A model generated the notes under the pieces. The model made no database searches. It had not been told where the DNA came from and saw only the letters and a program-made list of their open reading frames with translations. From Posidonia oceanica (Eukaryota; Streptophyta; Magnoliopsida; Alismatales; Posidoniaceae): a DNA stretch of 64,000 nucleotides. Where the stretch lies: contig JAZBRS010000023.1 of assembly GCA_037176725.1 (NCBI GenBank), forward strand, positions 31,491,001-31,555,000. Direction: 5' to 3'. Below, piece after piece: positions 1 through 59,813 of this stretch (its first letter is position 1; each line of letters begins with the position of its first letter). The position numbers and the translations under genes were made by a program.

Positions 1-1276
1 GCATTTAAATCATAATAGCAAGGAAATAAATTAATCAAAGACAGCAGAGGTGTTGGACGCTACCACAGTGCACGTCCAACGTTAGACACACCAGGTTGTG
101 CGTCTAACAAGTCGAGAAACTTCTCGGCAAGAATCGATACTCAAATCGATCCAAAACAGAAAACTAACTAGCTAGGAAGCATAAGCATGCAACAATGATC
201 ATAAACATGTATTTGAAATCAAAAAAAGTGTGTGGATCACTCGACCCACCTCCTCCCTCTTGCTGCCGGCGTTCATGGCTTTTCAGGTCATCTGGGTGAT
301 CCAAGAGCCATGAAGCTTGGCTATGAGGCTCTGGTATGATGAGGAAGGAGATGGGGAACGCATGAGAGAGAAGAATCTACCTGTACGTGGCCCAGAGGAG
401 CTATGTGTGTGGCCGATCAAAGCTGACGATGGAGGCAGACAGCGGTTCGGATGGACGGCTTGGAAGCGGAGGGAATGCTTGGGAAGGTTCCTCTCACACG
501 GGGGGAGCTCTCTGGATTGCTCTGGGAGGTTGGGAGGCTCTGGTTGTTTCTCAATTCTCTCTAGAATGCGTAGGCGGTGGTGGAGGAGATGGGTTGGGTT
601 GGTTTTGATCGGTCAAGGCCGCACAGGGGGTCTTGGTGGCAGGGCAAGGTGGAGAGGAGATCGTGGGATCGTGGAGGCATGGGTGCGAGGTCGTGGGAGG
701 TCTCAGAGGTGGTGAAAGTCAAGGTGAAGGTGTTAGGCTGGCATGGGTGGCCGTTTGCGTGGGAGGAGAACTGTAGGGGTGGTTGAGGCTTGGCTAGGCG
801 GTTCTGGGGCAAGGCACCGGTTCATGGGCCGAGCTAGGTGGCTGGGCGGTCCGTGGGAAGCAGTGGTGTTGGCAGAGGACGGCCTTGGGCGCGGCGAAGG
901 GCAGCCAAAGGGGCTGCTGTAGTTGATGCGTTGGACGCTAACCAGAGCAGCGTCCAATGTAGGACGCTGACAATTGTAGCGTCCAACGTTGGACGCTGGC
1001 ACGACCAGCGTCTAACGTCCCAGAGAGGTTTTAGGGCTATTTTGGGATTTTTGGCTTAGGTTGAGGCTTAGGTTAAGGCATAGGATTGACTTAGCTATGG
1101 TTTAGGTGGGTTTTAGGTTTGGATGAGGTTTTGGGCTAGGTTTGGGATAGGTTTGGGATTAGGTCAAGGATTAGGTCAAGGATTAGGGTTTGGAGGTGAG
1201 GGTCCACTGTGCCACATTCCGAGCAAGCATCCAGAAAGGTCCATCAGCGAACGATTGTCAAAATGGGGTGTTTACA
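1..1276 (-). mobile_element. LTR of family A, 5' portion in minus orientation (continues off the left edge)
   Basis: Read on the minus strand this LTR begins TGTAAACACCCCATTTTGAC at 1276, the same opening as the LTRs at 23135 and 29194 (TGTAGACACCCCATTTTGAC) and 21954. Next comes a stretch rich in CCTAA/CCCAAA words (about 1050-1200), then a GC-rich block (about 300-900), the same order as in other family A LTRs. It holds hairpin units at 52-108 (two) and 930-1016 (three of 29 nt). Open frames at 317-1059 occur on both strands and look like composition effects of the GC-rich block, not genes. The other end lies outside the window, so solo LTR or full element cannot be decided. Confidence 0.75.
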
Positions 1277-1938: not shown

Positions 1939-4900
1939 TGTAACGACCCACCCAGTCGCTACCTCTCAACCTAACCAGATTCTTTTTTCATTTTTATCCT
2001 TTATTAGCATTTATGAACTATAAAGCTAAATTCTCACAATGCAATAAGAAACAATAAATAAACTAACTTACTTACCCAGAAACCCTGATGTATGGTAGCA
2101 TAACTCCTCCTATGTGTACCAGCAAGCGAACAACACCTATCCTGCACTTGCAAAAACACGCAAACCAAAGCACACGTGAGTGACCAAACAAAACGGTCAC
2201 CCAGCATACACCCCACCTAAACCACTCAGCCAACAATGCTGAGGGAGCTGGCGTAATCATGCCACAACAAACAAACACGGGCATCTCAACTGGATGCCAC
2301 CACAGCACAACAGGGTAGCACAATATTGCCTGGCCAACAACAAAAATCAATAAAATGTGCCTTTGAAATCATTTATCTCTTTTCCTTTCAAAATCATATG
2401 CATGCTCTTTCAAAATCTTAAAAGCATACTTGAAATGGCCAATCTAGCCAAATCAAGCCCAAAACACAAAACCAAGTCGCAGCCTCGTCCTAAGCCCTCA
2501 TTGGACGGACTAGACGGCCAACAGGGCATGAATGCCTCAATCGCATTCAAAACGTACAGCACAACGAACACAAAGCCAACCAAACACAGGGTCTCAATGG
2601 CCAAACAACAACGCCTCAAAAAGGAGGAAAACTCTAAGCCCAATATGGCCAACACTCAGTAAAAGCCTCCAAGCCACAAAAACAGGCAAAGCTCGGGGCC
2701 CAAGATGGCCAAACGAACCAAGCACGGCCCAAACGGGCATCAAAGAAAACCAACAAGTCGTGTTGCCTTGTGCCCCAGCAACTGACCTGGCTTCAAGCAG
2801 TAGCCGGGGGCTCACCCCTGCAACTCACTGCACTACCACGGACACCCACCCTGTGGGAGAGCGTGCCCGTCACGGCATCTCACACCAGAGAAGCAATAAA
2901 AAGCAATCCTCAACTGCGAAAGCTGTCCACACTCGGGACAAACCACAGGGCACGCCTAATACGGCGCCTGCAAACTCAGTGCTCTGAACTAGAAGAGGCT
3001 CCTCACCCTGAGGCTCAGCCAGCGCCCACAAGTCTCGGTCCCCGTAACAACTAAGGTATCACATCCTGCTACATAGGAGTATCATACCTCCCAAGTCTGT
3101 TGCCATGATACCACTAGGTACGGCCGTCACCTCGATCCCACAGACCTCAACCCCGGTGATGTGTCCGACGCACCGCAGAGTGTAGTCACATTCCCAAGGA
3201 ATGCAGTCACACCCACGGGTCCACACTACACTCACCTCGAAGTCTTGGCCTGCAACAAGTACTCGGACCTTACCTTGGCAATAGCTCATGACCCTAAGGG
3301 TGTCAGTCGTCCCTACAAGGCTGGCCAATGCCTCAGTCTCGGTCCACAACCAAAGGCATAGTAAAATCCTTTCCAAAACCTTTTCAAAACTAATGTATTT
3401 TCTTTCAAAACTCCTTTCGAAGACCGTTTCAAAATCCTTAAAAGACAACTCAAAAACACCACAAAACACAGTGCAGAACACAACACGAAAACCATGAACA
3501 GAAACCATAGCTTAAAACACAACCAAAACACAGCCTCGACAGCTCCTCTATCATGCCCAAGAACCACACTACAAAACGCAACACAACAGAGAAACAAAGG
3601 CACATTCTAGGCAAAACGTTTACCCAGGAGACACCACCCAGAAGCACAACACCGATCTCGAAGTCCCAATGTACTTACGAGACTGAGTACCCACACAAAC
3701 TACACTCAGAACTCTACGTCCTGGTGCTAAGGTCTAATCCTATGGTTATCATGTTCCCTAATGTCCATCTAGACCAAATAGGGAAAACCTTAGCATTACT
3801 TGATCGTTTAGTCTTTTAATTCCAGCCCTAGAACATGTGGGATCTTGCTAATTCATTTTAGGCAATTCTTACTTATCTCTAATGATTTGCCTAATTATCA
3901 TTATGCCCTATCTACCTACAATGTCCAATTAGCACTACTCTCATTAGAATTATCAAAAACAAGTCCCTAAGGGCTTAAAGTAACTAAATCCCAAAAGTCA
4001 AGAACTAAAAAGCAGTTCCCATAAAGCTTAGGGACTAAACGGCAATATCCACTGAACTTAGGGACTAAAAAGTAATTAGTATAAAACTAGGGACTTACAT
4101 GCAATTTAAATGTAAAGCTAGGGACTAAAAAGTAACTCAGGCGTTGGACGTTGGGAAACCCTGCGTCCAACATTGGATGTAGAGAACCCTACGTCCAACA
4201 CCTTGGAGTCCCAAATCCCTCTTATCTACAAATATGCATGCCCAAAAATTAATCCATGGTTAACTACTAAATTAAACATCATGCAATCTACAACGCAACT
4301 ACCAATCCAACCACTAATCAAAACATGCCCCTTGATCAGAAAAACATGGGAAACAGCAGCAAGGGCGTTAGACGCAGCTCAGCTAGCGTCTAACATTGGA
4401 CGCACCAAGGTGTGCGTCCAACGCCCTGAATCAGGAGGTTTAGCTAGAACCTCCCTCACAGGCATGCAATCACCACACAAACCACAACCATACAAGCATA
4501 CATGCATATAAACATATTCAAGGTATTAATGAACTAAACTACCTCATTAAACATGCAAATAAAATCTCTAAAGAGGCGTGTACCTTGCACCCAAGAGGTG
4601 AGCCAACACAACGAGCTCCAACGTGATCCAAGGCTCCCTGCAAGCTCCCAGCCACTCCCCAAACCTCCTCCGGCCATCTACCAAGCCCACAACAGCCCTA
4701 GCATAGAAAATCGCCTAAAATCAGTGGGTGAAACCAAGAAAGAAAAGAAGGAAAGAGGAGAAAGGGGTACCAAGGCCTCTATACACCTCTCTCTCTCTCT
4801 CTCTCTCTCAAGCTCCCAGGCACCCAAAGATCGCCAGAGAACACCCCCCATGCTGCTGGAGAAGAAAGGGAGGAAGTAGGGAAGAAAATACCTCCAAGGA

Positions 4901-5237
4901 GCCATTGACTTACTCCTTAAATAAGCAGCTGGTGCACTCAGAGCGTTAGATGCTATCTGTCCATGCGTCTTACATAAGACGCACCACATTCTATGTCTTA
5001 CACTCAAAAATCTAGGAGCACCGACATACAGGTGTTGGACGCAGGGTTCCTTGCGTCTAACATAAGACACAAGCCCACTAGTGTCTAACAACCTGAGGCT
5101 AGAAAATCCACATTCCAAGTGTTGGATGCGGGATTTCTTGCGTCTAGCATAAGACGCAACATTTCCAGCATCTAATACCCTCAGATTCTAGATTAAATAT
5201 CTGGCCTAAAATGCCACCTAAAAATCTGGGTCTTACA
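1939..5237 (-). mobile_element. Element D, complete LTR (3.3 kb, minus orientation)
   Basis: On the minus strand the LTR runs from TGTAAGACCC (5237) to GGGTCGTTACA (1939), with TG...CA ends. The primer site lies directly beyond its 3' end and a purine-rich tract directly before its 5' end. Internal sequence on both sides means it is either shared by two tandem D copies or rearranged. Five pairs of 28-29 nt hairpin units lie at 4143-4199, 4368-4423, 4945-5001, 5034-5089 and 5121-5176. A CT microsatellite sits at about 4790-4812. The ORFs inside (for example 2532-3054) are not recognisable and are treated as chance. Confidence 0.8.
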
Positions 5238-5646
5238 TCCTAACCACCTTAAAAGAATTTCGCCCCTGAAATTTACGAGGCAAGAAGCCAAGGGGTACCA
5301 ACTCGGATGTCTCATTCACGATCATAGACAACCAGCACACAGATGCCTCCCAAAACTTAGCATCAGTAGGGGAAATCTACACTCCACAAGGCCATCTTGC
5401 CCTACTAAAACCCTGAGCGATGCCAAAGACTCAGCTCTCCTTGAGTCGAAACTCCACTAATCCCTGGAAAAAGGTCCCTTAAGGACACAAAATCTCTAGC
5501 CACAAGCTCACCTCCGTGTCTCCAGAGTCACAAAGCATCCAGAGCCACTCTAGCAGACACGCAAAACCCAGGGACGACCAGGTGCAACTGGATCTAACCA
5601 GCATTCGCTGTGCTTCTCTGATGCCCCACTCGGTCAACAACAATTC
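5238..5646 (-). mobile_element. Element D, 3' internal remnant with polypurine tract
   Basis: The minus strand immediately before the LTR reads TTCTTTTAAGGTGGTTAGGA, preceded by GGGGCGAAA. This resembles the end of pol plus polypurine tract seen in many plant Ty3/gypsy elements (a 'GAAATTCTTTTAAGG' type ending). The remainder to about 5646 has no open frame I can assign and ends abruptly. Confidence 0.55.
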
Positions 5647-5673
5647 TGTGGATGTGGATTTGGGATATCTGCA
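5647..5673 (-). repeat. Possible 27-bp remnant of a B-type LTR (both termini only)
   Basis: The minus strand reads TGCAGATATCCC followed directly by AAATCCACATCCACA. The first part matches the start of the B-type LTR (TGTAGATATCCC, see 54835) with one change. The second matches the end of that LTR (56407-56421). It would be an LTR that lost all but its ends. No target duplication is visible, so chance is not excluded. Confidence 0.35.
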
Positions 5674-6476
5674 CTCTCATTAGAATTATCAAAAACAAGT
5701 CCCTAAGGGCTTAAAGTAACTAAATCCCAAAAGTCAGGGACTAAAAAGCAGTTCCCATAAAGTTCAGGGACTAAATGGCAATATCCACTAAACTCAGGGA
5801 CCAAAAAGTAATTAATATAAAAATAAGGACTTGCATGCAATTTAAATGTAAAGCTAGGGACTAAAAAGTAACTCAGGCGTTGGACACTGGGAAACCCTGC
5901 GTCCAACGTTGGACGTAGAGAACCCTACGTCCAACACCCTAGAGTCCCAAATCCCTCTTATCTACTAATATGCATGCCCAAAAATTAATCCATAATTAAC
6001 TAATAAATTAAACATCATGCAATCTATAGTATGCAACTACCAATCCAACCACTAATCCAAAACCTGCCCATTGATCAGGAAAAACATGGAAAACAGCAGT
6101 AGGGGCGTTAGACGCAACTTAGCTTGCGTCTAATGTTGGACGCACCAGGGTGTGCATCCAACGCCCTGAATCATGAGGTTCAGCTAGAACCTCCCTCACA
6201 TGTATGCAATCACCATACAAACCACAACCATACAAGCATACATGCATATAAACATATTCAAGGCATTAATGAACTAAACTACCTCATTAAATATGCAAAT
6301 AAAATCTCTAAAGGGGCGTGTACCTTGCACCTAAGAGGCGAGTCAACACAACGAACTCCACCGCGATCCAAGGCCCCCCGTGCGAGCTACCAACCACGCC
6401 CTAAATCTCTTCTGGCCATCTACCAAGCCCACAGCAGCCCTAGCACTGAGAATCCCCCAAAATCAGTAGGTGGAAC
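5674..6476 (-). mobile_element. Second, partial copy of the element D LTR
   Basis: About 800 bp aligns by eye with 3938-4734, starting at CTCTCATTAGAATTATC in both and ending at TCAG(T)GGGTG(A)AAC. It contains the equivalent hairpin pairs near 5879-5935 and 6105-6160. It starts abruptly after the internal D remnant and is cut at 6476 by the start of the next LTR. Frames within it (6124-6555) are not genes. Confidence 0.75.
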
Positions 6477-8483
6477 TGTAGCGTTCCCGCTTGAAATCGG
6501 CACATCCATGCGCACTGCCAGAGCTCGCGCGCATCGACCGATGAGAGGCCGCTGATAGTTGGTGGATCCGAGGAAGGAAACTCGACTCGAAAACATCGAA
6601 AAAGGGCAGAAAAACAAAGATAAAGCAAATTCGGAGTCGCCAGCTAGTCTATTAAATCGGAAGATGAGAAAAACCGAGAAAAAGCATGAAAACATGCAAA
6701 TGGGTGCAATGATGTGCAAAAATAAATGACTCGTGCCTAGGATAAGGGCATAATGGTCATTGAAGGCCAAGAGAAAGGGTAAGGACTCTTGTTACGCACG
6801 AGGAAGGTGTTAGGTACCCCCAATATGCTCGGAATCGTACTTTCTAGGCTTCTCGCTCACATATGCAGGAATGTCGGCAATGCTTGCCTTTACTGTATGC
6901 CTGAGGGGCGAGGGATGCAATGCCACGCTATGAATGCTTAATTACATGCTCAAATGTATGCTCAAGATGCCATGATGTGTGATGGAAATTAAACGTGCAG
7001 TTTTTGTGCTCAGCAGCGTTGCCAGTGTTCTGATCCGGACGTGCCCTGATTAATAAGAACTCCAGACAGTAAGCATCACTGCCTTAGATGCAATGCAGGC
7101 AAGAAATCAAAACGACGAATAAAACCATGCAATGCGAATAGTGACATGCGACATGCATTTGTAAAACTTGCAGAGCTTAGTAAAAACATGCCAGAAAGAC
7201 TAATCGAAGTTAAAACACTGCAAAGAGACGATAAACAGGTTATGGAAACTAAACAAGAACTAAACAAGTGGAATAAACAATGTGTAAAGCGGCAACAGGG
7301 GTGGCTCTGGCTACTGTCTGAACTACAGCCTTGGTCACCACCCTGAACGGCGGCAGTGCATGTCGCCGATGATATTGGCAAGGCACATGCCACCACTCAG
7401 AGCAGTAACAACTGCAGTTGCCAGTGTGAGCGGCATCTGAGCATGTCGCCGATACAACTGGCAACATAGGCATGAACAGTGCTCTTCAAATAGCGACTTT
7501 CATTGCCAAAAACAAGCTAGATAATCGATGTAAAATGGCAAAGTAAATGCATGGAAATAAAGATGGCATATTCAGGATCAAGACCATGCGATTAAACTGT
7601 AAAATGGACGCATAGGTTGCGAGATACGGTGGCTCCAAGTTTGGCTGGAGGACTGCCAAGAGTTGGAGGTGAGTCGCCGGTGAGACAGGCAACATCACTA
7701 CAGCTCAAGTACTCCAAACTGCCAACCTTGGGACCAAATCTAGAACCCATGGCTATGCAAAATGAACATCTAACTATATGAACATGAAGAGTAAACAACC
7801 AGGATTACAAGCATATAAAATCAAGCAAAACGGAGCTCTGGGTCGGACGGAGCAACAGCCTAAAGTCCGACCGGTGGCAGTTGGAGGTGTAGGTTAGTCG
7901 CCGCTCTCGCTGGCGGCTAACCTGGCAGTCTTTCTGGCACCAGAGACGAAGGCTAAGAACGGCAATGAAGGCTCGATAAAATGCAATTAAATAACTGGGA
8001 AGCAAGCATGGCATACCACGAAGCTGAGGGGAAGGTTTCTCACTTGCGGGAGCACGTGGAGCGGCTCCCCGACATAGCTCGCCGGTGCGCGCTTGCGCGG
8101 AGGTCGCGGCTGTGCAAGGGACGACGGCGGCTGTCCGGGGAGGGTGTATGCAAAGTTTGGCGGCGTTTGGTGCCGCGGTGTGGCCTCTGGCTGTTTACGG
8201 CCGGTGGTGGCCAAGGAGGACGGCGACGGTTCGATTGGCTGTTGCAGGCTATTTGTGGTGGCTTGGAGCTGTGGGAAGCGTCACACGGGATGATAGAAGT
8301 GTATGGGGCTTGCTGGGGGGTGTGTTGGTTGCTGTTGGGTGGCTGACGGAAGGACGGCCGGTGATGAGTTCAAATGGGCGGTGGGAAATGCTGCGAGGTT
8401 TGGTGGCAATCCGGGAGGCTATGGAGAGGTGTGGATGGCTCGGGCAAAAGCTATGGGATTGGGGAGTGTTCCTGGATCGCTGC
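6477..8483 (-). mobile_element. Element E, 3' part of its split LTR (family A-like)
   Basis: On the minus strand this part ends ...CGCTACA at 6477. It shares with the family A LTR end (26250-26382) an ordered set of blocks: a GGTGGCGACTCCG-like block, CGAGTCGAGTTTC followed by CTTCCCTCGGATC-like text, and GCGAGCTCTGG near the end. Around 6780-6830 lies the conserved block for 'gtgcctaacacctt'. The LTR is interrupted at 8483/8484 by element B and resumes at 49681, where it opens TATAGACACCCCATTTTGACA on the minus strand. Short hairpins of the GTCGCC type occur near 7359, 7443, 7672 and 7895. The ORFs at 7981-8649 overlap on both strands in GC-rich DNA and are rejected as genes. Confidence 0.7.
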
Positions 8484-9111
8484 TGTAGTGTGGAATTTGG
8501 GGGGTGTTTTAAGAAGATGTCGGCGCCTCCACGTACGTCATCAACTTTGTTGTGATCGCCACTCGCCTTTGGGTAGACAGGACACCTGGGGGGAGATTAT
8601 GAAGATGCGGGTCCTCGGACCACTAGATCGACGGCTGGATGTCGTCTAGCGGCTCCCTCGTGTTATGTAAGCTCTTTCCTTCCCTTCAAAACAAAATGAC
8701 ATAGATCTAGATTAGTTCAAGTGTAGTAGTCAGTAACAGAAATAAACGAAACAACATGACTAAAAAAAACAAATACTAACCGGGGGTTGTTCCCCGCATA
8801 CATATGCTATGGGTCCTATGCTAAGGAAAGTAAAAATGCGATGAAAAATTAGATTGGAGGAAGATACTCCCTTTCACCCTCATGTTGAATGCAATAAAGT
8901 TGAAAGGAGGCACGATCGGAGCTCTGGCTTAGCTGGTGATATTGGAATGTAGATGGGAATTGGGTTTCCTTCTTCTGAAAGGTGGGAGATAGGGCTTCTG
9001 GGTGAAGGCTCTAGCTCTGGAAGGTGGAGACTTACCACTGATAGGGTGATTCCTCTCCTGGAAATTCCTCTCTCAAAAATTCCGACCCTCAAACCACTGG
9101 CCTAGGGGTTC

Positions 9112-9119
9112 TATTTATA
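9112..9119 (-). promoter_or_regulatory. TATA box of the B 3' LTR
   Basis: The minus strand reads TATAAATA in the context CTATAAATAG. The same box occurs at the equivalent place in the 5' LTR (48780-48787) and the solo LTR (55796-55803). The hairpin array lies upstream of it in all three. Confidence 0.7.
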
Positions 9120-9181
9120 GACTCTAGGGGGTAAGGACGGTTGGAGTTCAGAAAATTCTAAAAAAAGTGGCAGTAAGGGTT

Positions 9182-9650
9182 AGTCGCCTATTGAGTTGGC
9201 GACTAAGGCTAGCAACCGCCCAGTCAAAATGTGGGAAGACTCGGGAATGAGGCCACGACTATTAGTCGCCAATTTAGCTGGCGCCTATTGGTCGTGGGGG
9301 TTGTGGGAAATAACCGTGGAAAAGCGGTTCAAAGGAGCCACGATCTTTAGTTGCCGGTTGAGTTGGCGCCTAATGGTCGAGGGTCGTGGGAGGTAACCGC
9401 TCAGTCGCCGGATGAGTTGGCGCCTGAGGGTTGACGGGGGATCCTGGGAAACAACGGCTGCAATCCACAATCGCCCAGTCGCCGAGTTAGTTAGCGTCTA
9501 AGTGGGTTGCCTCCACAGATGGCAGTTGAATTGGCCGCCTCTGCTGTTGGCAACTGACTTAGTCGCCTTTGTAGCTGGCAACTGCCCGAGTCGCCTCTCC
9601 AGCTGCCAACTAGCTGAGTCGCCTCCCCAGCTGGCAACTAGTAAGCTTAG
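9182..9650. repeat. Array of GTCGCC...GGCGAC hairpins in B LTR U3
   Basis: At least seven short inverted repeats of about 23 nt follow each other. The first is AGTCGCC (9182-9188), 9 bases, GGCGACT (9198-9204). Later units start near 9263, 9350, 9403, 9477, 9515 and 9560-9650, with variants such as GTTGCC/GGCAAC and GTCGCC/GGCGCC. The array lies about 60-540 bp upstream of the TATA box in the direction of transcription. Confidence 0.8.
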
Positions 9651-23134: not shown

Positions 23135-26100
23135 TGTAGACACCCCATTTTGACAGCCTGGAAGTTGGTTGTTTTCTTTCATAGGCTCGTGTGGACTCTG
23201 GAATGGCATTCTTTTTTTCCTAACCCATTTTTCTAGCCCAAAACCAAGCCCAAAACCTTGCCTAAACTTTAAAAGCCTTACCCCAAGCCTCTTTGCAACT
23301 TTTAAAACCTTCCTAGGCCCAAGCCCAAGCCCATTTGCAGCCTTTGCCAACTGAGTGTGTTGGACGCTGGAATAGGCAGCATCCAACGTTGGACGCGCCC
23401 TATGGCAGTGTCCAACATTGGACGCCCTCAGCTCCAGCGTCCAACGATTCGATTACAGCAGCGGCTGCTCCGCGCCCTTCGGCTCACCGCCCGTCCACTC
23501 CACCGCCTCCCCGCATTTACTACTCGTCCCCTCTTCCACTCCACGCCATCCACTACCTTCGAAGACCAAGTTACTACCCATCTTCTCCTCATCAGCACCA
23601 AAACCGCTCTCTAAGCCCTCACTGCCAGCAGCTGACTTCCGCCGCCCGTACCTGCCACCGCCCTAACCTCGCTGGCCCTCTTACAACACCCATGCCCTCT
23701 CCTGACATCCCTTATGGGTTCCCTACACTCACCAGCACCTGCCACCACTTGCAATTGCCAGAATTTGGCCTGCAACCTTGACTGCCAGCACTTGAACCCA
23801 TGCAAGCTGAACAAAACCGCAAGTTCTAGCCATTTTAGCGGTCACCACATGGAGCCAAGAAGAAATTCGCCACCTCTGAGAGCAAGAGCGAACTCCCTTC
23901 TCCGTCCTTGACCTATTGCCAACCTCTCCGGTGCCTCCAGCATCTCGTGCGACCTCGCCGGAGTAGCTCCGATCAACGCATCAGCAACGCCGACAAGCGA
24001 GGTGGAACCGCCGTTCCAGGCTGTCAAATGGTAAGTTCTCTAGCCCCCATAGGTCATGCATGTCTGATAGTATGTTCCCATGCATTTTCACTTTTTTTTG
24101 AATCCTTTTGGCCACAATTTGTAGCCAGAAGGGAGTTCAGTGTGTTGGATGTGGCATTGGCCGGCGTCCAACACCTTGTCTGGCCTTGCTCTTGTTTTGT
24201 TGCTCTTCATGCTTTGTTATTGTTGGTTCTTTTGCGAATCCATGCTGCATGCTTCCTTAAAGGTCTTCTGATGCTATGTCAAGCCTATTTGCTTGTTCCA
24301 TGCTTGCTTGAATCATCTTTGCATGCTTTAATGTCATTCTATCATCTGCCTGCATTGGACGCCTGGGTGAGCCGCGTCCAACGTTGGACGCTGGTTCACC
24401 TAGCGTCCAACACCCCTGTTAGCTATAACTTGCTGCCATGCTTACGTTATGCCTATTTTTGATGCTATTTCGTGATCCATGCTTGCTTAGAGATGCATGG
24501 CCCCTATGGCAACCATGCTTAGGTTTGCTAGGATCTTTTTAAGTTGCTTGCACCTTTTTGCAAAGTTTAATCCTCTATTTCCATGCTTGCCCTCTTTCTA
24601 TTTTGCTTTTCTTGGATTAAATGTTTGCTATGGATGTTTATTTTGATCTGGTATGCCTTAGTATGTTTGCATGCATATAGGTGGGGTTAGAGCTGAGCTC
24701 CCCCTTTAGTACAGGTGGGTCTGCATGCTGTGGTCGTTGGACGCTGCTGGCTCCAGCGTCTAACGGCCCAGCTCCTCACTTTGTTGTTTAAAGCTTGCAT
24801 GATGTTCTGATATGTTTCCTTGCATGTCTCCTGTGTTTCCATGCATGTTTAGCTTCCTTTGCAACTATTCTTCATCCTTCATTAGATCCTTTGCTATTTT
24901 ATGCAAGTTTTTTGCGTGTTGTGCCTCCTAGGGCGTTGTACGTTGCTGGTGCAGGTGTCCAACATTGGACGTTGGCCTAGCTTGCGTCCAACGTTCTGGT
25001 TCTGCCTCTGGCCTGGCACAAGCTACAGGTAAAGTTTTTTGGTTTCTTATGCTTCCCTTGCTTGCATGTTTGCCCCATGCTCATCCCCAGTAGCCCAAAT
25101 GCATGTCCCCATTTTTATTTTGCCTTGTGTATGCTTTTTTTCTCTTGTTGTCTTCTGGCCTGTGTTAGACGCCTGTCTCTCTGGCGTCTAACGTTGGACG
25201 CCATGCTTAGCGGCGTCCAACAACCTGCTTGCTTTGATCCTTGATCCTGGCTCACCTCCTGCTCTGATTCCTCATCTAATCTTCTGTTAGGTTAGTCCTG
25301 CATGTCATGTACCCATTTAGTTGCATTCATGCATCTGTATTGCATCCATATAGCTAGAATGCACTGATTTCTAAATGTTGCATGTTGTCTGCCTCCAGCA
25401 GTTGTTGGACGCCAGCAATGGCAGTGTCCAACGTTGGACGCTGCTGTTGCCAGCGTCCAATGCTTGCAGTTGGCTTGACTCAGTTTTAAAATGCCGATTT
25501 TGCTCCGCTCGTCGTTTTCCGTGTTTTATTGCTTCTAATGCTTGCTGCAACCCCTATGCATGCTGCCTAACCCTTGTTTGGATCTTACGCCTTGCTTTCG
25601 CCTTGTTTTCTGCATCTTGCACTGCTTTCCCCCCATTTGCCTCGTTTTCCGCATATTGCATCGTTTTCCGCATGTTTGCCTCGTTTCCCGTGCCCTGCAT
25701 TGTTTTCCGCATTTCGCATCATTTTCGGCACCTAGTTTCCTTTATCGCTTGCATGTCGTTTGCATTGCTTGGTTTTCCTGGCAGTTTTGCTTTATTGCCT
25801 GCATCTGCATTTAGGGCTATGATGCTTACTGCTTAGGAGTTCTCACGACCCAGGGTCCGCCTAGTTCGGAACACTAGCAGCGTTGCTGAGCACATAGATA
25901 GCACGTTTATTTCCCATGCATAGCAGGTAGGCATTCATGGCATTTAAGCATTAGGCTAGCATTTCCCTGCATTAGCGTGAGATTGCCTACGAAAGATCGA
26001 CTCTCGGACGTATCGGGGGTGCCTAACACCTTCCCCATGCGTAACAGGAGTCCTTGCCCTTTCTCTTGGCTCGCATCGACCTTTCCTTTATCCTAGGCAT

Positions 26101-26382
26101 GAGTCATAGCATAGCATAGCATTGCATTGCATCCCTTTGCCCCCTCCTTGCATCCAGTTTTACATGTCTTTTCATGTGTTACCCTTGGTTTTTCCTGTCT
26201 TCCAATTCAATAGATTTGGTGGCGACTCCGATTTTGTCTTATCATCTTTTCTTTTCCTTTTTGCCAGCGTTTCCGAGTCAAGTTTCTTCCCTCGGATCTT
26301 GCCGTATATAGTGAGCCTATTTTGATCGGTGCATGTGAGCTTTGGTATCGTGCATGGACGATCAGAATTCAGGATTACTACA
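23135..26382 (+). mobile_element. Solo LTR of family A inside element B integrase
   Basis: The ends are TGTAGACACC (23135) and GGATTACTACA (26382). The target duplication GGTTT is perfect (23130-23134 and 26383-26387). The sequence matches 29194-32439 over its length by eye, with moderate divergence. No internal region is present, so it is a solo LTR from LTR-LTR recombination. Seven hairpin clusters of 28-29 nt units lie at 23359-23445 (three units), about 24144, 24354-24411, about 24738, about 24935-24992, about 25165-25220 and about 25404-25460. Confidence 0.9.
23359..23445. repeat. Three tandem 29-nt hairpin units
   Basis: Units 23359-23387, 23388-23416 and 23417-23445 are each exactly 29 nt and directly adjacent. 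Each is a 9-nt arm GTTGGACGC (or one change), 11 nt, and a 9-nt arm GCGTCCAAC (or one or two changes). Unit borders form the 18-bp palindrome GCGTCCAACGTTGGACGC or a near copy. Confidence 0.9.
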
Positions 26383-27430
26383 GGTTTCAACTTTCCCTTT
26401 GGGTGGGGCTTATTGTAGGGCAACACTTCTTTAAGCACTAGATCACTAATTTTAAATTTGCGTTCAATTACTTTCTTTTGGTAAGCCTTGGTTAACCTTT
26501 GTTGGTAGACACGCGTATGCTCGGCGGCTGCCAGCCATTTCTCATCAAGGAGTTCCAAATGAAGGAGTAAAGCTTGCTTCTTTTCTTTGGCAGACATTCT
26601 CCTATCAATCTTAATTCTTATTGAGGGGATCAGGATCTCGTATGGGACCACTGCTTCCATACCAAAGGCTAAAGCATAGGGGGTTTGACCCGTTGCCGTC
26701 CTTATGGTGGTGCGGTATGCCCATAACGCATTAACAAGCTTATTTGACCAATCCGATCCCTTAGCGTCTTCTACCATCTTTTTAATGATTTTGATTAAGG
26801 TTTTATTAGTAGCTTCTGCTTGACCGTTCCCTTGTGGGTAATATGGGGAAGAGTGGTGTAGAGTGATACCGAATTTTTGGCATAACCGCTTGAACTCTTC
26901 TGAGATGAAGATCGGTCCGTTGTCTGCTACTAAGGCTTTAGGCACCCCGAACCTTGCGATGATATTTCGTTGTACGAATCGGCACAGGGTCGTGGCTTTG
27001 ATGTTCGCGAACGTCTCTGCTTCTGCCCATTTGGTGAAGTATTCCGTCGCCGTTAGGATGAAAGTGATGCCCTTTCCCTGATGGATGGGTCCCACCACAT
27101 CGAAGGCCCACATGGAGAAAGGCCATGGTGTTGATAAAGCGTGAAGCACTGAAGCTGGAGCATGAATCTTGTTGGCATGCAGCTGGCAGCTCTTGCACTG
27201 CTTGACTTTACTTGCGCAGTCAACTTCCATGGTAGGCCAGTAATATCCCCTTCTGATGATCATCTTAGCCATGAACTGGGAGTTGATGTGGCCCCTGCAG
27301 ACTCCCTCATGTGTTTCCTTGAGAATCTCGGCTGACTCAGATGCATCCACACATCGGAGTTCAATCCCTAGGGGTGTTCTCCGGAAGAGTGTGTTTGCTC
27401 TGATGTAGTACTTCGTAGCCATCCTCCTTA
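26383..27430 (-). pseudogene. Element B integrase, main part
   Basis: An open minus-strand frame covers the integrase: an N-terminal HHCC zinc region (HEGVCRGH ... CKSCQLH), then the catalytic core with D of FDVVGPI, D of VADNGPIF and E of GNGQAEATNK, then a basic C-terminal region ending at the LTR junction just before the GPY/F motif. All three catalytic residues are present. The enzyme would insert the cDNA copy into the host chromosome. The frame is broken only by the solo LTR, which adds foreign codons down to 26172. It is the best preserved pol domain of B and is in frame with the archaeal-type RNase H before it. Confidence 0.9.
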
Positions 27431-27602
27431 GTGCTTCTCTGTCCTTGGGAGTTGCATAGGTCGGGAAGGTGCGATCTTGTACATAATTTTGTATGTCATA
27501 ATACCACGGGTTGCCATCGCCATTTACTTCTGTAGCTCCTTGATAACAAACCTCTGTGCATATTAAGCTTTCCTGGTTTAGTTCCTCTCTGAGTTTTTGA
27601 AC

Positions 27603-28064
27603 TCATTCAGTGGCAGACTCCACTATTGGTGCGCTGATTCTTTGCACCGTGATGGATTGCTTGTCTGTCTCTGAGCTGAAGGGGAGTGAGGATGCTAATG
27701 AGGCCAATGAATCAGCCAGGATGTTGTTGCTTCTAAGTGTGTGCACATACATAACCCTGTCAAACTTCTTCAGTAAGGCTTTAGCTAGGTTGCGGTATTC
27801 CTGCAACTTTGGCGAGAGGGTCTTGTATTTGTTGAGGACTTGCCGTATGACAAGCTGTGAGTCCCCAACTACTTTTAGTCTTCTTGCCCCTAGATCAAGA
27901 GCCATTCGAAGCCCTAGAATGAGTGCCTCGTATTCTGCAATGTTATTACTTGCTGAGAAGAGTAGTTGGGCTACAGCGGGGAGAACAATACCCTTTGGAG
28001 TGAGGAGTGTTGCCCCTATCCCAGTGCCTGGTGAATTAAGCGTCCATCGAAATGGAGGGTCCAT
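27603..28064 (-). pseudogene. Element B second RNase H (archaeal type, aRNH)
   Basis: The minus frame shows the archaeal-type RNase H pattern: SASNNIAEYEALILGLRMAL, then VVGDSQLVIRQV, and a late NNILADSLASLAS. A second RNase H of this kind between the usual RNase H and integrase is the mark of Tat-lineage Ty3/gypsy elements (Ogre, Retand and relatives). The first catalytic Asp (HFDG) is encoded just upstream in another frame, so a one-base deletion near 28045 breaks the domain. The stop at 27603 follows the domain. Confidence 0.8.
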
Positions 28065-28207
28065 TCTTTGATGAGTGGCATGACACTACTGATTGCCAGT
28101 ATTTCCTCGTCTAGGAAATCTGTTGATATTGGCTGATACTCTGACACAGGTAGCCCGGTGAGTTGATCCGCGATAGCTTGCCCCTTGATCGCCTTCTGAG
28201 TGATGAA

Positions 28208-28546
28208 CTATAGGTCGAACTCAGTAAGGAGCATTTGCCATCGTGCTAGCCTTCCGGACAATGCTGGTTTCTTGAACAAGTACTTGATAGGGTCCATCTT
28301 GGTTAAGTAGCAGACTTTGTGTGCCAGAAAGTAGTGCCTGAGCTTCTGTGAGGCCCATACTAAGGCTAGGCAATGTCTCTCGATCTGGGAGTACTTCCTC
28401 TCGTATTCAATGAACGTTCTGCTGAGGTAATAAATCGCTTTCTCCTTCCTTCTAGTCTCATCATGTTGTGCAAGGACGACACCTACCGAGTTATCAGTAA
28501 CGGCCAAGTAGAGTAGCAATGGCCTCTCGGGGACTAGAGCAGTCAA
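28208..28546 (-). pseudogene. Element B first RNase H (Ty3/gypsy type)
   Basis: The minus frame encodes LYLAVTDNSVGVVLAQ, AIYYLSRTF, YSQIERHCLALVWA and LSGRLARWQMLLTEFDL, the typical gypsy RNase H run following RT. It degrades the RNA strand of the RNA-DNA hybrid during reverse transcription. It is in frame with the RT part to its right, separated by TAG at 28592-28594 (likely from CAG), and ends in a second TAG at 28208-28210 after EFDL. Confidence 0.85.
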
Positions 28547-28591
28547 TACTGGAGGGTTGAGGAGGTAGAGTTTTAGCTCATCAAAGGCCTT

Positions 28592-29193
28592 CTAACAGGT
28601 GTGATCCCACTTGAATTCCGTGCCGCCTTTTAAAAGCTCATAGAATGGTCTACACTTTTCTGCATGCTGAGAGATGAATCTGCGGATAAACTGTAGCCTC
28701 CCTATGAGTCCTCTGAGCTCCTTGACATTCTTTGGAGGTGGCATGGCTGTTATAGCTTTAGCTTTGGTGGGATCGACTTCTATGCCCCTTTTGCTCACTA
28801 TGAAGCCAAGTAGCTTTTCGGCAGTAACCCCGAAGACACACTTCTTGGGGTTCATTCTGAGATTGTACTGGTCTGCTCTCCGGAGTACTCTTTCTAGTGC
28901 TTCAAAGTGTCCCTCTCTTGATTTTGACTTTACTAACAAATCATCCACATAGCACTCCATGCAATCATGTATCATGTCGTGAAAGATTGCCATCATAGCC
29001 CTCTGATAGGTGGCTCCAGCGTTCTTTAATCCGAACGGCATGACTACATAGCAGTAGGTTCCCCATGGAGTGGTAAATGAGGTTTTCTCCTGATCTTCTT
29101 CTGCAAGTTTAATCTGGTTGTAACCAGAGAAACCGTCCTTGAATGAGAGCATCTCATGGCCTGCAGTGTTGTCTATGAGGATGTCGATATGTG
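28592..29193 (-). pseudogene. Element B reverse transcriptase, C-terminal part
   Basis: This holds the fingers/palm motifs of Ty3/gypsy RT: MLSFKDGFSGYNQI, FTTPWGTYCYVVMPFGL, the catalytic YVDD (YVDDLLVKS) and NPKKCVFGV. The 12 kb element A is inserted just upstream. Reading frame and sequence continue exactly at 41203 when one ATGTG target copy is counted, so the RT was intact at that point when the insertion happened. The RT N-terminal part is at 41203-41600. Confidence 0.9.
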
Positions 29194-32100
29194 TGTAGAC
29201 ACCCCATTCTGATAGCCTGGAGATTGGTTGTTTCTTTCACAGGCTCGTGTGGACTCTGGAATGGCCCTTGTTTTCCTAACCCTTTTTTTCCAACCCAAAC
29301 CCAAGCCCAAAACCTTGCCCAAACCCTAGAAGCCTTTACCAAGCCTCTTTTGCACATTTTCAAACCTTCCTAAGCCCAAGCCCAAGTCCATTTGTAGCTT
29401 TTGCCAACTGAGCGTGTTCTACGCTGGAACAGGCAACGTCCAACGTTGGACGCTTGCTGTGCCAGCGTCCAACGTTGGACGCGCCCTGTGCTGGCGTCCA
29501 ATGTTGGACGCCTCCTGCTCCAGTGCCCAATGGCACGGCTACAGCAGCAGCTGTTCCGCCCCTTCCAGCTCACCAGCCGTCCAATCCCCCGCCTCCCCGC
29601 ACTTACTACCTGTCCTCTCTCGCCCTCCAGCTCATCGACTACCTTCCAAGGATGAGTAACTACCTAAGAGACCAATCATTTCAAATTCAACCGAAAACCC
29701 GCTCTCTCCGCCCTTACAACCTTCGGCTGCCCGTGTCAGCCACCGCCGTGGCTTCGCCGGCCATCTGACATGCCTCTGCCAAAGCCCTGACATTCCTCGA
29801 GCCTCCCACACACCCATAAGCCTCTGACATCGCCTGCAACCGCCTGCAAATCCTCTGCCAAAGCCGCAGCTCGCACACAAACCCATGCACCAGATGCACA
29901 AAACTGCCCCCTTCCCTCCATTCCAACATTCACCACACCAAGCCAAAGGAGAATTTGCCACTTCCAAGAGCAAGAGCGATATCCCCTCTCCGTCCTCGAC
30001 CAGTTGCCAACCTCTCTGGTGCCTCCAGCTGCCTGTGCGTGCTCGCCGAAGTAGCTGCTGCCAGCACCTCCGCAACTCCGGCAAGTAGGGTGGAGCCGCC
30101 GTTCCAGGCCACCAAACGGTAAGCACTCCATCCCCTTAGGTCTTGCATGCTTAGTAGTACGTCCCCATGCAGTTTTACGCTTTTTTGAATTCTTTTGGTC
30201 GTGATTCACGGCCAAGAAGGAGTTCAGTGTGTTGGACGCACCAGCTGGTGCGTCCAACGTTGGACGCGGCATAGGCCGGCGTCCAACGCTCTGTCTTGCC
30301 TTGCTCCTGTTTTGATGCCTTCCATGCTTTATCATTGCTTGTTTTTATGTAAACCCATGCTATATGCTTCCTTAAATGTTCTCTGATGCCATGCCATGCT
30401 TATTAGCTTGTTCCATGCTTGTTTGAATCCTCTTTGCATGCTCTGATGACCATCTGTCTCCTGCCTGCGTTGGACGCCAGGGTGAGCCGCGTCCAACGTT
30501 GGACGCTGGTTCACCCCGTGTCCAACACTCCTGTTAGCCATAGCTTGTTGCCATGCCTATATCATGCATATTTTTGATGCTATTTTGTGATCCATGCTTG
30601 CTTAGAGATGCCTGGCCCCTATGGCAACCATGCTTAGGTTTGCTAGGATTTCTTTAAGTTGCTCATTCCCTTTTGCAAGTTTTAAGCCTATATTCTTATG
30701 CATGCTCCCTTTTTATCTTGTCCTCTTGGATTTAATGCTTGCCATGTTTGCTGTGGATGTCTATTTTGTCCTGGTTTGCCTTAGCATAACTGCATGCATG
30801 TAGGTGGGGTCAGAGCTGAGCTCCCCCTTTAGAACAGGTAGGTCTGCATGCTCTGGTCGTTGGACACCAGAGCCTTCAGCGTCCAACGTTGGACGCTGCT
30901 GGCTCTAGTGTCCAACGTCCTGGCTCTTCATCTTACTGTTTAAAGCTAGTTTAATGCTCTGATCTTGCTTGTTTGCCTATCTACTGTGTTCCCATGCATG
31001 CTTAGCCTCTTTAGCAACTGTTCTTTAACTTCTGTGGATTATTTTGCTATTTTATGCATGTTTTTTTGTGTGCTGTGCCTCCCAGGGCATTGTACGCTGT
31101 TGGTGTTGGCGTCCAACATTAGACGCCGGCCTAGCTTGCGTCCAACGACCTGGTTGTGTCTCTGACCTGGCACAGGCTGCAGGTAAGGTTCTTTCTGGTT
31201 CCTTTGTGACCCCATGCTTGTATGCTTGCCCTATGCTTTTATCCAGTAGCCCCAATGCATGCTCCCATTTTTATTTTGCCATTGTATGCCTCTTTCTCTC
31301 CCCTGCCTTCTGTTCTGTGTTAGACACCTGCCTCTCTGGCGTCTAACGTTGGACGACAAGTCTACAGTGCGTCCAACAACCTACTTGCTTTAATCTTGGA
31401 TTCTGGCTTGCACCTTACTCTGATCCCTCTTCTAATCTTCTGTTAGGTTAGATCTGCATGTTAGGCACCCATGTAGTTGCATTTTTGCATCTGCATTGCA
31501 TCCATGTAGCTAGAATGCACTGTTTTCCAAAACTTGCATGCTGTCTGCCTCCAGTAGGTGTTGGACGCCAGCAATGCTAGCATCCAACGTTGGACGCTGG
31601 TGTTGCCAACGTCCAATGCTTGCAAATGGCTGACAACCATTTTAAAATGCCGATTTCGCTTCGCTTGCCGTTTTCTGCATTTTTTCGCTTCTTTGGCTTG
31701 CTGCAACCCCTATGCATGTTGCCCAACCCTTTGTTTTAGCTTTGCACCCCGTTTTGCACTGTTTTCCGCATTTCGCATGGTTTTCCGCACCTGTCTTGCT
31801 TTATCGCTTGCATGTCGCTTGCATTGCTTGGTTTCCTTGTCGTTTTGTTTTATCGCCTGCATCTGCATATAGGTTAGTGATGCTTACTGCTTAGGAGTTC
31901 TCACGAACCAGGGTCCGCCCAGTTCGGAACACTAGCAGCGTGGCTGAGCACATAAATAGCACGTTTATTTCCCTTGCATAGTAGGTAGGCATTTATGGCA
32001 TTTAGGCATTAGGCTAGCAATTCCCTGCATTAACGTGAGATTGCCTAAGAAAGACCGACTCTCGGACGTATCAGGGGTGCCTAACACCTTCCCCGTGCGT

Positions 32101-32439
32101 AACAGGAGTCCTTGCCCTTTCTCTTGCCTCGCATCGACCTTCTCCTTTATCCTAGGCTCGAGTCATAGCATAGCTTAGCTTAGCATTGCATCCCTTTGCC
32201 CCTCCTTGCATCCGGTTTCGCATGTCTTTCCATGCTTAACCCCATGTTTTCCCTGTCTTCTAATTTAATAGACCCGGTGGTGACTCCAAATTGTCTTATC
32301 ATTTCTTTTCTTTTCTTTTGCCAGTGTTTCCAAGTCGAGTTTCTTCCCTCGGGTCCAACCGCATATAGTGAGCCTATTTTGATCGGTGCACGCAAGCTTT
32401 GGTAACATGCATGGACGATCAGAATTCAGGATTACTACA
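29194..32439 (+). mobile_element. Element A 5' LTR
   Basis: This is 3246 bp with TG...CA ends. Hairpin clusters: four adjacent 29-nt units at 29416-29531, and pairs at 30231-30287, about 30472-30527, about 30860-30916, about 31093-31147, about 31319-31373 and about 31560-31616. A GC-rich block (29530-30115) ends in a donor-like ACG|GTAAGCAC. The ORFs inside are not genes. Confidence 0.9.
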
Positions 32440-32440
32440 A

Positions 32441-32460
32441 TGGCGACTTCGCTGGGGATA
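32441..32460 (+). promoter_or_regulatory. Primer binding site of element A (tRNA-Arg type)
   Basis: TGGCGACTTCGCTGGGGATA lies one base after the LTR end. It fits, with about two mismatches, the complement of the 3' end of plant tRNA-Arg(ACG) as I recall it, the primer reported for Ogre-like elements. Confidence 0.7.
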
Positions 32461-39515: not shown

Positions 39516-41202
39516 CTTGTTTTCTGTAAACCCATGCTATATGCTTCCTTAAATGTTCTCTGATGCCATGCCATGCTTATTAGCTTGTTCCATGCTTGTT
39601 TGAATCATCTTTGCATGCTCTGATGACCATCTGTCTCCTGCCTGCATTGGACGCCAAGGTGAGCCACGTCCAACGTTGGACGCTGGTTCACCCTGTGTCC
39701 AACACTCCTGTTAGCCATAGCTTGTTGCCATGCCTATATCATGCATATTTTTGATGCTATTTTGTGATCCATGCTTGCTTAGAGATGCCTGACCCCTATG
39801 GCAATCATGCTTAGGTTTGCTAGGATTTCTTTAAGTTGCTCATTCCCTTTTGCAAGTTTTAAGCCTATATTCTTATGCATGCTCCCTTTTTATCTTGTCC
39901 TCTTGGATTTAATGCTTGCCATGTTTGCTGTGGATGTCTATTTTGTCCTGGTTTGCCTTAGCATAACTGCATGCATGTAGGTGGGGTCAGAGCTAAGCTC
40001 CCCCTTTAGAATAGGTAGGTCTGCATGCTCTGGTCGTTGGACACCAGAGCCTTCAGCGTCCAACGTTGGACGCTGCTGGCTCTAGCGTCCAACATCCTGG
40101 CTCTTCATCTTGCTGTTTAAAGCTAGTTTAATGCTCTGATCTTGCTTGTTTGCCTATCTACTGTGTTCCCATGCATGCTTAGCCTCTTTAGCAACTGTTC
40201 TTTAACTTCTGTGGATTATTTTGCTATTTTATGCATGTTTTTTTGTGTGCTGTGCCTCCCAGGGCATTGTACGCTGCTGGTGTTGGCGTCCAACATTAGA
40301 CGCCGGCCTAGCTTGCGTCCAACGACCTGGTTGTGTCTCTGACCTGGCACAGGCTGCAGGTAAGGTTCTTTCTGGTTCCTTTGTGACCCCATGCTTGTAT
40401 GCTTGCCCTATGCTTTTATCCAGTAGCCCCAATGCATGCTCCCATTTTTATTTTGCCATTGTATGCCTCTTTCTTTCCCCTGCCTTCTGTTGTTTTAGCT
40501 TTGCACCTTGCTTTGCACTGTTTTCCACGTTTCGCATCGTTTTCCGCACCTGTCTTGCTTTATCGCTTGCATGTCACTTGCATTGCTTGGTTTCCCCGCC
40601 GTTTTGTTTTATCGGCTGCATTTGCATATAGGGCAATGATGCTTACTGCTTAGGAGTTCTCACGAACCAGGGTCCGCCCAGTTCGGAACACTAGCAGTGT
40701 GGCTGAGCACATAGATAGCACGTTTATTTCTTTTGCATAGCAGGTAGCCATTTATGGCATTTAGGCATTAGGCTAGCAATTCCCTGCATTAGCACGAGAT
40801 TGCCTAAGAAAGACCAACTCTCGGACGTATCGGGGGTGCCTAACACCTTCCCTGTGCGTAACAGGAGTCCTTGCCCTTTCTCTTGGCTCGCATCGACCTT
40901 CTCCTTTATCCTAGGCTCGAGTCATAACATAGCATAGTATAGCATAGCTTAGCTTAGCATTGCATCCCTTTGCCCCTCCTTGCATCCGATTTCGCATGTC
41001 TTTTCATGCTTAACCCCATGTTTTCCCTATCTTCCAATTTAATAGACCCGGTGGCGACTCCGAATTGTCTTATCATTTCTTTTCTTTTCTTTTGCCAGCG
41101 TTTTCGAGTTGAGTTTCTTCCCTCGGATCCAGTCGCATATTTTGATCGGTGCACGCAAGCTTTGGTATCGTGCATGGATGATCAGAATTCAGGATTACTA
41201 CA
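39516..41202 (+). mobile_element. Element A 3' LTR, 5'-truncated and internally deleted
   Basis: Matches the 5' LTR from about 30338 onward; the first 1.14 kb is missing and the junction shares CTTGTTTT with the linker. A second deletion of about 410 bp (equivalent of about 31315-31735) joins TTCTGTT to GTTTTAGC near 40488. Hairpin pairs remain at about 39649-39705, 40037-40093 and 40268-40324. Confidence 0.9.
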
Positions 41203-59792: not shown

Positions 59793-59795
59793 GTC

Positions 59796-59813
59796 TGGCG
59801 ATCACGGTGGGAT
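59796..59813 (+). promoter_or_regulatory. Primer binding site of element F
   Basis: TGGCGATCACGGTGGGAT begins three bases after the LTR end and matches the B site at 48128-48145 in 15 of 18 positions. The matching tRNA is not certain from memory. Confidence 0.65.

What the first reader, a model, noticed from the sequence alone, without database searches (positions are those of the whole stretch)
23359..29531. Tandem hairpin units of exactly 28-29 nt form a recurrent module in family A LTRs
Units with 9-nt arms GTTGGACGC / GCGTCCAAC and 10-11 nt between them abut without spacer in runs of two, three (23359-23445) or four (29416-29531). Length is 29 nt in nearly every family A unit I measured, though the middle varies freely. 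Each border makes the 18-bp palindrome GCGTCCAACGTTGGACGC. In some pairs the two middles also pair with each other (24354-24411: GGGTGAGCC and GGTTCACC), so the whole 58 bp is an imperfect palindrome. There are seven clusters in each full LTR. I know of no described LTR feature like this; constraint on length and dyad with freedom in the middle suggests a protein-binding array or a structured RNA.
Basis: seen in the sequence. Interest (0 to 1): 0.88.

Follow-up and report, generated by a model that had tools for sequence, protein, structure and literature searches.

The report
Paired-dyad operator arrays in retrotransposon LTRs
A plant genome holds well over a hundred thousand copies of a 28-29-letter mirror-image DNA module, found in the stretches read mainly in retrotransposon control regions, and its fixed length and fixed end letters suggest paired docking sites for an unidentified DNA-binding protein rather than a folded RNA.

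Summary
In the window's own genome (2.96 Gb) the frame GTTNNNCGC-N-GCGNNNAAC occurs 65,123 times at 28 nt and 123,619 times at 29 nt, but 307 times at 27 nt; reversed controls are 5, 117 and 71. Several LTR families carry it; three LTRs of a sister-type start show none. Two half-sites face each other across 10-11 bp, and units abut, mostly in pairs. Each half-site keeps its own base rules even where the arms do not pair: all three central pairs match in only 32 of 98 listed 28-mers (shuffled 13.8), and the base just outside clusters is fixed on each side without pairing. This favours a dsDNA operator for a dimeric protein over a structured RNA, which is not excluded. Best explanation: LTR-resident arrays of inverted binding sites with caliper-like spacing, serving activation or anti-silencing; the protein is unidentified. 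Nearest functional analogue: VANC motif arrays of VANDAL transposons. The literature searches made listed no description of such an LTR feature.

The parts
23135..26382 (+). solo LTR of family A (A1), starts TGTAGACACCCCATTTTG, inserted in another element
   Evidence: self-comparison; LTR-start scan; sequence
23359..23445 (.). A1 cluster 1, three 29-nt units
24144..24172 (.). A1 cluster 2, one unit
24354..24411 (.). A1 cluster 3, two units with mirror-related middles
24736..24764 (.). A1 cluster 4, one unit
24935..24992 (.). A1 cluster 5, two units
25164..25221 (.). A1 cluster 6, two units; first has compensated GTTAGACGC/GCGTCTAAC
25404..25461 (.). A1 cluster 7, two units
29194..32442 (+). 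family A LTR (A2), upstream LTR of a damaged Ty3/gypsy element
29416..29531 (.). A2 cluster 1, four units (first and last diverged)
30231..30287 (.). A2 cluster 2, 28 + 29 nt; A1 has one unit here
30469..30526 (.). A2 cluster 3, two units
30859..30916 (.). A2 cluster 4, two units; A1 has one
31089..31146 (.). A2 cluster 5, two units
31319..31377 (.). A2 cluster 6, 29 + 30 nt (a length exception)
31560..31617 (.). A2 cluster 7, two units
39646..40323 (.). three two-unit clusters in the partial family A LTR copy at 39516-41205
52..1016 (.). two clusters (2 and 3 units) in an LTR on the minus strand starting at 1276 (TGTAAACACCCC)
4143..6162 (.). 28-29-nt units, paired and single, in a 1.7-kb repeated region (3937-6476) with no match of 150 nt or more to the family A LTRs
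58615..61352 (.). mostly 28-nt units with other central triplets (GTTATACGC, GTTGAACGC, GTTGTCCGC, GTTAGCCGC) in an LTR starting TGTAGATACCCC at 58407 (family D)
7893..9207 (.). family B-type 29-nt units at 7893-7921 (GTTAGTCGC...GCGGCTAAC) and 9179-9207 (GTTAGTCGC...GCGACTAAG)

Best explanation
Each 28-29-nt unit is a double-stranded DNA operator: two copies of a degenerate half-site (about Y-GTT-R-D-M-CGC) facing each other across 10 or 11 bp, bound by a dimeric protein that, like a caliper, accepts a separation varying by only one base pair. Units are placed head to tail without spacer, mostly in pairs, to make a cooperative array, and several such clusters lie along each LTR. Shown: sequence, spacing, copy number, facing pairs as the rule, presence in several LTR families. 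Inferred: that a protein binds, that it is dimeric, and that binding activates the LTR or protects it from silencing. The protein may be a host factor or, as with the VANC proteins of VANDAL transposons, one the elements encode themselves. Extra units probably arise by unit-step duplication, in part by fold-back copying during reverse transcription, which would explain why neighbouring middles are often reverse complements (inferred).
For: Length: 65,123 at 28 nt and 123,619 at 29 nt against 307 at 27 nt, with reversed controls 5, 117, 71. Facing pairs: of 191 exact half-sites GTT[AG][AGT][AC]CGC in the window and L001-L021, 180 have a partner at 10/11 nt (87 of these also a junction partner), 2 have only a junction partner, 9 have neither. 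Half-site base rules: in 98 distinct 28-mers (100 listed of 65,123) chosen without regard to the central triplet, position 4 is G/A in 193 of 196, position 5 never C in 196, position 6 A/C in 189 of 196; in 56 distinct 29-mers (63 listed of 123,619) position 4 is G/A in 112 of 112, position 5 is C once, position 6 is A/C in 101 of 112, ten of the 11 exceptions being the AGG/AGT type of family B. One base outside the clusters is T/C on the left in 69 of 73 and A/G on the right in 70 of 73, yet the two sides match no more than chance (32 against 33.5): two separately read half-sites, not paired bases. Of 114 central mismatches in the 28-mers, 71 are of kinds that cannot wobble on either strand (recount). 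With left arm GTTATACGC fixed, 19 of 81 listed places have the matching right arm; right triplets GCC, GCT, TCC, TCT recur 11-12 times each; of five such non-matching types folded (four of family D, one of B), three show no fold above shuffles (z -0.3 to -0.8).
Against: No protein has been shown to bind. All three central pairs are complementary more often than chance (32 of 98 against 13.8), A-family units and clusters fold with z -4.5 to -8.6, two of the five non-matching types still fold (z -2.9, -3.5), and neighbouring middles are mirror-related above chance (5.04 against 4.02): all also expected of a selected hairpin or of fold-back copying. Most copies are decaying, so post-insertion mutations say little about selection. 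Base rules rest on the first listed places, all on contig C1. Of 20 LTR starts scanned 8 are not enriched in dyads, three of them without any dyad (L018, L021, window -21954, all starting TGTTGACACCCC), although L007, which shares that start, has nine.
Confidence: 0.6

Rival explanations
1. Structured RNA: the units are stem-loops in the LTR transcript, used for packaging, dimerisation, splicing or silencing control; the dyad is kept because it must pair as RNA.
For: Two A-family single units fold with z -4.5 and -6.8, and two A clusters with z -8.1 and -8.6 against mononucleotide shuffles; two of five units with non-matching arms also fold (z -2.9, -3.5). Full complementarity of central triplets exceeds chance, 32 of 98 against 13.8. 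Compensated arms occur, e.g. GTTAGACGC/GCGTCTAAC at 25164. In the 7 oriented family D units G.U is 4 and A.C 0 (p 0.12).
Against: In 144 LTR-oriented units G.T and A.C mismatches are equal, 69 and 71 (65 and 63 in 133 units without the region whose strand I set by eye), whereas RNA should tolerate G.U more. Recurrent units such as GTTATACGC...GCGGCCAAC do not fold. Bases are fixed beyond pairing needs: R, D, M and outer Y. No Rfam family matches the window.
Confidence: 0.19
2. No function: arrays arise and persist by fold-back template switching and slippage during reverse transcription, which copies units, mirrors middles and repairs arms.
For: Mirror-related neighbouring middles, exact abutment in 69 of 69 steps, and 25 counted gaps of about unit length or a multiple over 34 pairs of aligned LTR pieces, not independent of each other.
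Against: Copying does not explain why units keep 28-29 nt when their middles have diverged, why half-site letters stay within R, D, M in families with different triplets, or why only 307 exact 27-mers exist genome-wide.
Confidence: 0.12
3. The units are themselves a mobile or recombining hairpin element that inserts into LTRs.
For: The same half-sites occur in repeat regions without detectable similarity to the family A LTRs.
Against: I noticed no clean empty site or target duplication, though I ran no dedicated search; units sit at corresponding positions in A copies and change in number in place. Of 191 half-sites 180 lie in facing pairs, and middles share little sequence.
Confidence: 0.04

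Closest known systems
VANC-binding motif arrays of Arabidopsis VANDAL transposons (PMC5735166; passages read; PMC10398659 abstract and outline)
   Same: Short 8-9-nt motifs multiplied as tandem repeats in noncoding parts of a plant transposon, differing between related families; the paper reports binding and loss of methylation. The VANC6 motifs AGTTGTCC/AGTTGTAC match half-site positions GTT-R-D-M-C.
   Different: VANDALs are DNA transposons. The passages read describe no obligatory inverted pair with fixed spacing (the terms palindrom and inverted have no occurrence in that main text). The leading A of the VANC6 motif conflicts with the pyrimidine before our half-site; the VANC21 motif YAGTATTAY does not match. 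No binding protein is known here.
Inverted ARF sites IR7/IR8 and the caliper model (PMC10690724; passages read)
   Same: Two facing half-sites whose separation is limited (IR7/8 for AtARF1) because a dimer bridges them.
   Different: ARF half-site is TGTCNN with 7-8 bp between, 5-9 for AtARF5; ours is Y-GTT-R-D-M-CGC with 10-11 bp. The passages read do not speak of abutting arrays in LTRs.
Tandem repeats and antisense ORFs of Retand Ty3/gypsy elements (PMC11963269; passages read)
   Same: Plant Ty3/gypsy elements with repeat arrays, and antisense ORFs judged probably able to bind DNA.
   Different: Those arrays lie between pol and the 3' LTR and are described as tandem repeats; ours lie in LTRs and are inverted dyads with variable middles.
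Heat-shock elements in the ONSEN LTR (recalled; only a search listing seen)
   Same: As recalled, inverted short motifs in an LTR read by a multimeric host factor.
   Different: A different motif and, as recalled, far fewer copies; not compared here.

Membership tests
VANC-type anti-silencing target arrays | motif identical to a known VANC motif | tested here: not met
   GTTGTMC core shared with VANC6 in 26 of 196 half-sites (GTA 20, GTC 6), but the leading A conflicts with Y before the half-site (T/C in 105 of 120 cluster-end half-sites, A in 5)
VANC-type anti-silencing target arrays | short motif multiplied in noncoding parts of a transposon and differing between families | tested here: met
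VANC-type anti-silencing target arrays | DUF1985/VANC-like protein encoded by the same elements | not tested
   the family search of the genome did not complete; PMD-like pieces seen instead
VANC-type anti-silencing target arrays | protein binding and loss of methylation | not testable with these tools
   needs ChIP, EMSA and bisulfite data
ARF IR7/8 response elements | TGTCNN half-sites 7-8 bp apart | tested here: not met
   half-site GTTNNNCGC at 10-11 bp
RNA stem-loop element | pairing preserved by compensatory change, G.U tolerated over A.C | tested here: inconclusive
   excess full pairing 32 of 98 against 13.8, but A.C equals G.T in LTR-oriented units and recurrent poorly pairing units exist, three of five not folding
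Known Rfam RNA family | match at gathering score | tested here: not met
   0 matches in the window
Plant Ty3/gypsy LTR retrotransposon (host element) | gag, RT and integrase domains near LTRs | tested here: met
   Pfam Retrotrans_gag between the A2 LTR and the partial A copy; RVT_1, rve and Integrase_H2C2 on the minus strand between A1 and A2; five of the eight ORFs given to that call matched no family

The most novel reading that the evidence does not exclude
A large group of plant LTR retrotransposons runs a self-encoded, sequence-specific anti-silencing or activation system: an element-encoded protein (for example the antisense PMD-type ORFs) dimerises on 28-29-bp inverted operators arrayed in the LTRs, and family-specific drift of the central triplet restricts each protein to its own family, as proposed for VANC but in retrotransposons and with caliper-spaced dyads.
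Probability: 0.18. Interest if true: 0.88.

Novelty: new variant of a known kind. Interest (0 to 1): 0.72.

Why it matters
About 190,000 exact copies of one rigid two-part motif in a single genome is an unusually large set of candidate regulatory sites. If bound, these sites make up much of a retrotransposon family's control system and could be tested at once where ATAC, methylation and DAP data exist. They would let one ask whether LTR retrotransposons, like VANDAL DNA transposons, evolve private binding codes to escape silencing. The length and base rules give a precise probe for finding the protein.

Tried and rejected
Border palindrome as the essential module: rejected, since only 2 of 191 half-sites have a junction partner without an interior one. 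Strict arm covariation, which I first noted from reading the arms (note): weakened when unconstrained lists showed largely independent half-sites. Equal A.C and G.T counts in the genome-wide list (A.C 21 plus C.A 1, G.T 21): dropped as evidence on strand, because that list is not oriented by LTR, so equality is expected anyway; only the oriented set bears on it. For that reason I lowered the main reading from 0.62 to 0.60 and raised RNA from 0.17 to 0.19. Lower indel rate inside units than outside (0.062 against 0.196 gaps per mismatch): not used, because units were detected by their length. Intervening 170-324-nt segments as copies of one another: mostly weak, z 0.6 to 3.0 in 13 of 15 comparisons, 4.5 and 5.2 in two. 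Outer flank pairing at cluster level: none at position 1 (32 against 33.5); of eight positions tested only position 7 is above chance at p 0.02 (30 against 21.6), and base preferences are one-sided. Viral collection: 3 contigs hold the 18-mer, none with units by an exact test at 27-30 nt (that script stopped with a file error after printing all three). Prokaryote genome contigs: 0. Printed motif search: 171 papers hold a 9-mer, 40 listed, none about LTRs by title; in searches I saw titles and abstract starts of the 30, 15 and 10 listed papers, none describing such arrays. Library limit: open-licence PMC full text only. Host species: the one gag hit with a species name was Rhynchospora; named integrase hits include Victoria, Nymphaea, Colocasia, Cryptomeria, Prunus, Vitis and Camellia among others, none close; I could not name the species. 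R2R3-MYB dimers (PMC11995187, passages) and MAIN/MAIL1 (PMC7156037, passages) were looked at; no motif match was established. CENP-B box, MYB core and E2F resemblance: considered from memory, not tested, not used.
Full report
WHAT WAS CHECKED. The window lies at G000:C22:31491001-31555000 in a 2.96-Gb, 80-contig genome. Its coding traces are plant Ty3/gypsy: gag between the A2 LTR and the partial A copy, RT and integrase on the minus strand between A1 and A2; five of the eight ORFs scanned matched nothing in Pfam at 0.001. The only gag relative with a species name is from Rhynchospora; named integrase relatives include Victoria, Nymphaea, Colocasia, Cryptomeria, Prunus, Vitis and Camellia. The species was not identified. 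The two family A LTRs are 23135-26382 (solo) and 29194-32442, with a partial copy at 39516-41205.

Anchoring only on GTT...CGC and GCG...AAC, with at most one mismatch per arm and no use of pairing, the window plus 21 loci give 106 units of 29 nt and 39 of 28 nt, against 0-6 at every other length from 20 to 45. Genome-wide the exact frame occurs 123,619 times at 29 nt (reversed control 117), 65,123 at 28 nt (control 5) and 307 at 27 nt (control 71). The 30-nt count was requested seven times and not answered. With left arm GTTATACGC, 80 of 81 listed places are 28 nt and one is 27. The 18-bp border occurs 47,725 times.

WHERE IT IS. Six of 17 arbitrarily placed 10-kb stretches contain clusters. 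I did not check that all genome-wide places lie in LTRs. Of 20 LTR starts scanned in window and loci, 12 have more dyads than any of 20 block shuffles and 8 do not; three near-full A LTRs have 15-21 dyads against a shuffled maximum of 6. Three LTRs with the sister start TGTTGACACCCC (L018, L021 and window -21954; L018 and L021 only partly held) have no dyad, although L007, which shares that start, has nine including units. Families in the window differ in their central triplets: mostly GGA in A; ATA, GAA, GTC and AGC in the LTR from 58407; AGT in the family B regions.

THE MODULE. Of 191 exact half-sites GTT[AG][AGT][AC]CGC, 180 face a partner across 10 or 11 nt; 87 of those also abut a neighbour; 2 have only a neighbour; 9 have neither. 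The facing pair is therefore the basic module. Clusters hold 1, 2, 3 or 4 units in 17, 53, 5 and 2 cases, and all 69 steps inside clusters have zero spacer. Over 34 pairs of aligned LTR pieces (2 of 36 pairs skipped) 25 gaps of about 28-29 nt or a multiple were counted, not independent of each other. For example, 24144 has one unit where 30231 has two.

DNA OR RNA. In 98 distinct 28-mers (100 listed of 65,123) without constraint on the central triplet, position 4 is G/A in 193 of 196 half-sites, position 5 is never C, and position 6 is A/C in 189 of 196. The three central pairs are all complementary in 32 (13.8 by shuffling); 71 of the 114 central mismatches cannot wobble on either strand. In 56 distinct 29-mers position 4 is G/A in 112 of 112, position 5 C once, position 6 A/C in 101 of 112, the exceptions being mostly family B. 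In 144 LTR-oriented local units A.C is 71 and G.T 69 (7 of 151 units had no assigned strand and were left out); without the region 3800-6500, whose strand I set by eye, 63 and 65 in 133 units; in the 7 family D units alone 0 and 4 (p 0.12). One base outside the clusters is a pyrimidine on the left in 69 of 73 and a purine on the right in 70 of 73, but the two sides are independent (32 matches, 33.5 expected). These rules describe a half-site Y-GTT-R-D-M-CGC read on each side separately. Of five types with non-matching arms that I folded, three do not fold (z -0.3, -0.7, -0.8) and two do (z -2.9, -3.5); A units and clusters fold strongly (z -4.5 to -8.6). RNA is thus disfavoured but not excluded.

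ORIGIN. Middles of abutting units (69 distinct pairs) resemble each other's reverse complement more than chance (5.04 against 4.02, 0 of 2000 shuffles) and, less, each other directly (4.68 against 4.12, p 0.0005). Fold-back copying plus slippage would give both; this is inference.

FUNCTION. Strict facing half-sites with one base of play are what a bridging dimer requires; the ARF caliper model is a plant precedent (PMC10690724, passages). Motif arrays that differ between related transposon families are known for VANC, an element-encoded anti-silencing protein (PMC5735166, passages). Antisense ORFs thought probably able to bind DNA are reported in Retand elements (PMC11963269, passages), and gypsy-encoded PMD proteins are known (PMC5418596, passages). 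In the window, PMD-like pieces lie at 11186-12196 and 15320-16090 on the plus strand, below Pfam's cut-off (31.2, 34.3 and 32.8 bits against 34.9), opposite in strand to the pol ORFs of the minus-strand element. Whether any of them binds the units is unknown, and the region also holds an array-free LTR, so ownership is unclear.

LIMITS. Genome-wide base rules come from the first listed places on contig C1. Local loci are related copies, so p-values from shuffles overstate independence. No expression, methylation or binding data were available. On re-checking I withdrew the unoriented A.C/G.T equality as an argument and shifted the odds slightly towards RNA (0.62 to 0.60 for the operator, 0.17 to 0.19 for RNA).

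Noticed in passing
window family A, C (4143-6162) and D clusters: Gaps between successive clusters pile up at 160-199 nt (24 of 56 gaps under 1500 nt), with 171-173 nt in three LTR types; nucleosome-sized, not explained.
   Followed up: partly
window 9536-9639, 49221-49324, 49908-49982: Family B regions carry a second dyad type, GTYGCC-N9-GGCRAC plus 7 nt, also repeating every 28 nt.
   Followed up: no
window 16402-17018: Tandem array with a 29-30-nt period, 18.6 copies by TRF (row 16461-17018), whose unit contains the dyad GGCACGCAAAACGGTGCC, near an LTR without GTT/CGC units.
   Followed up: no
window 51298-52237: 48-nt tandem arrays with internal dyads (GGGCTATCAGCCC; CTCATC...GATGAG).
   Followed up: no
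window 11186-12196 and 15320-16090, plus strand: Plant mobile domain (PMD)-like pieces, antisense to the minus-strand element's pol ORFs; Pfam scores just below the cut-off.
   Followed up: partly
window 24029 and 30120: Splice-donor-like GTAAGT/GTAAGC at the same place in both A LTRs (by eye); clusters 2-7 lie downstream, so they may be intronic in the transcript.
   Followed up: no
window 39232-41205: The A2 element breaks off after the gag and protease-like regions and runs into an LTR piece, so RT and integrase seem to be missing (by reading).
   Followed up: no
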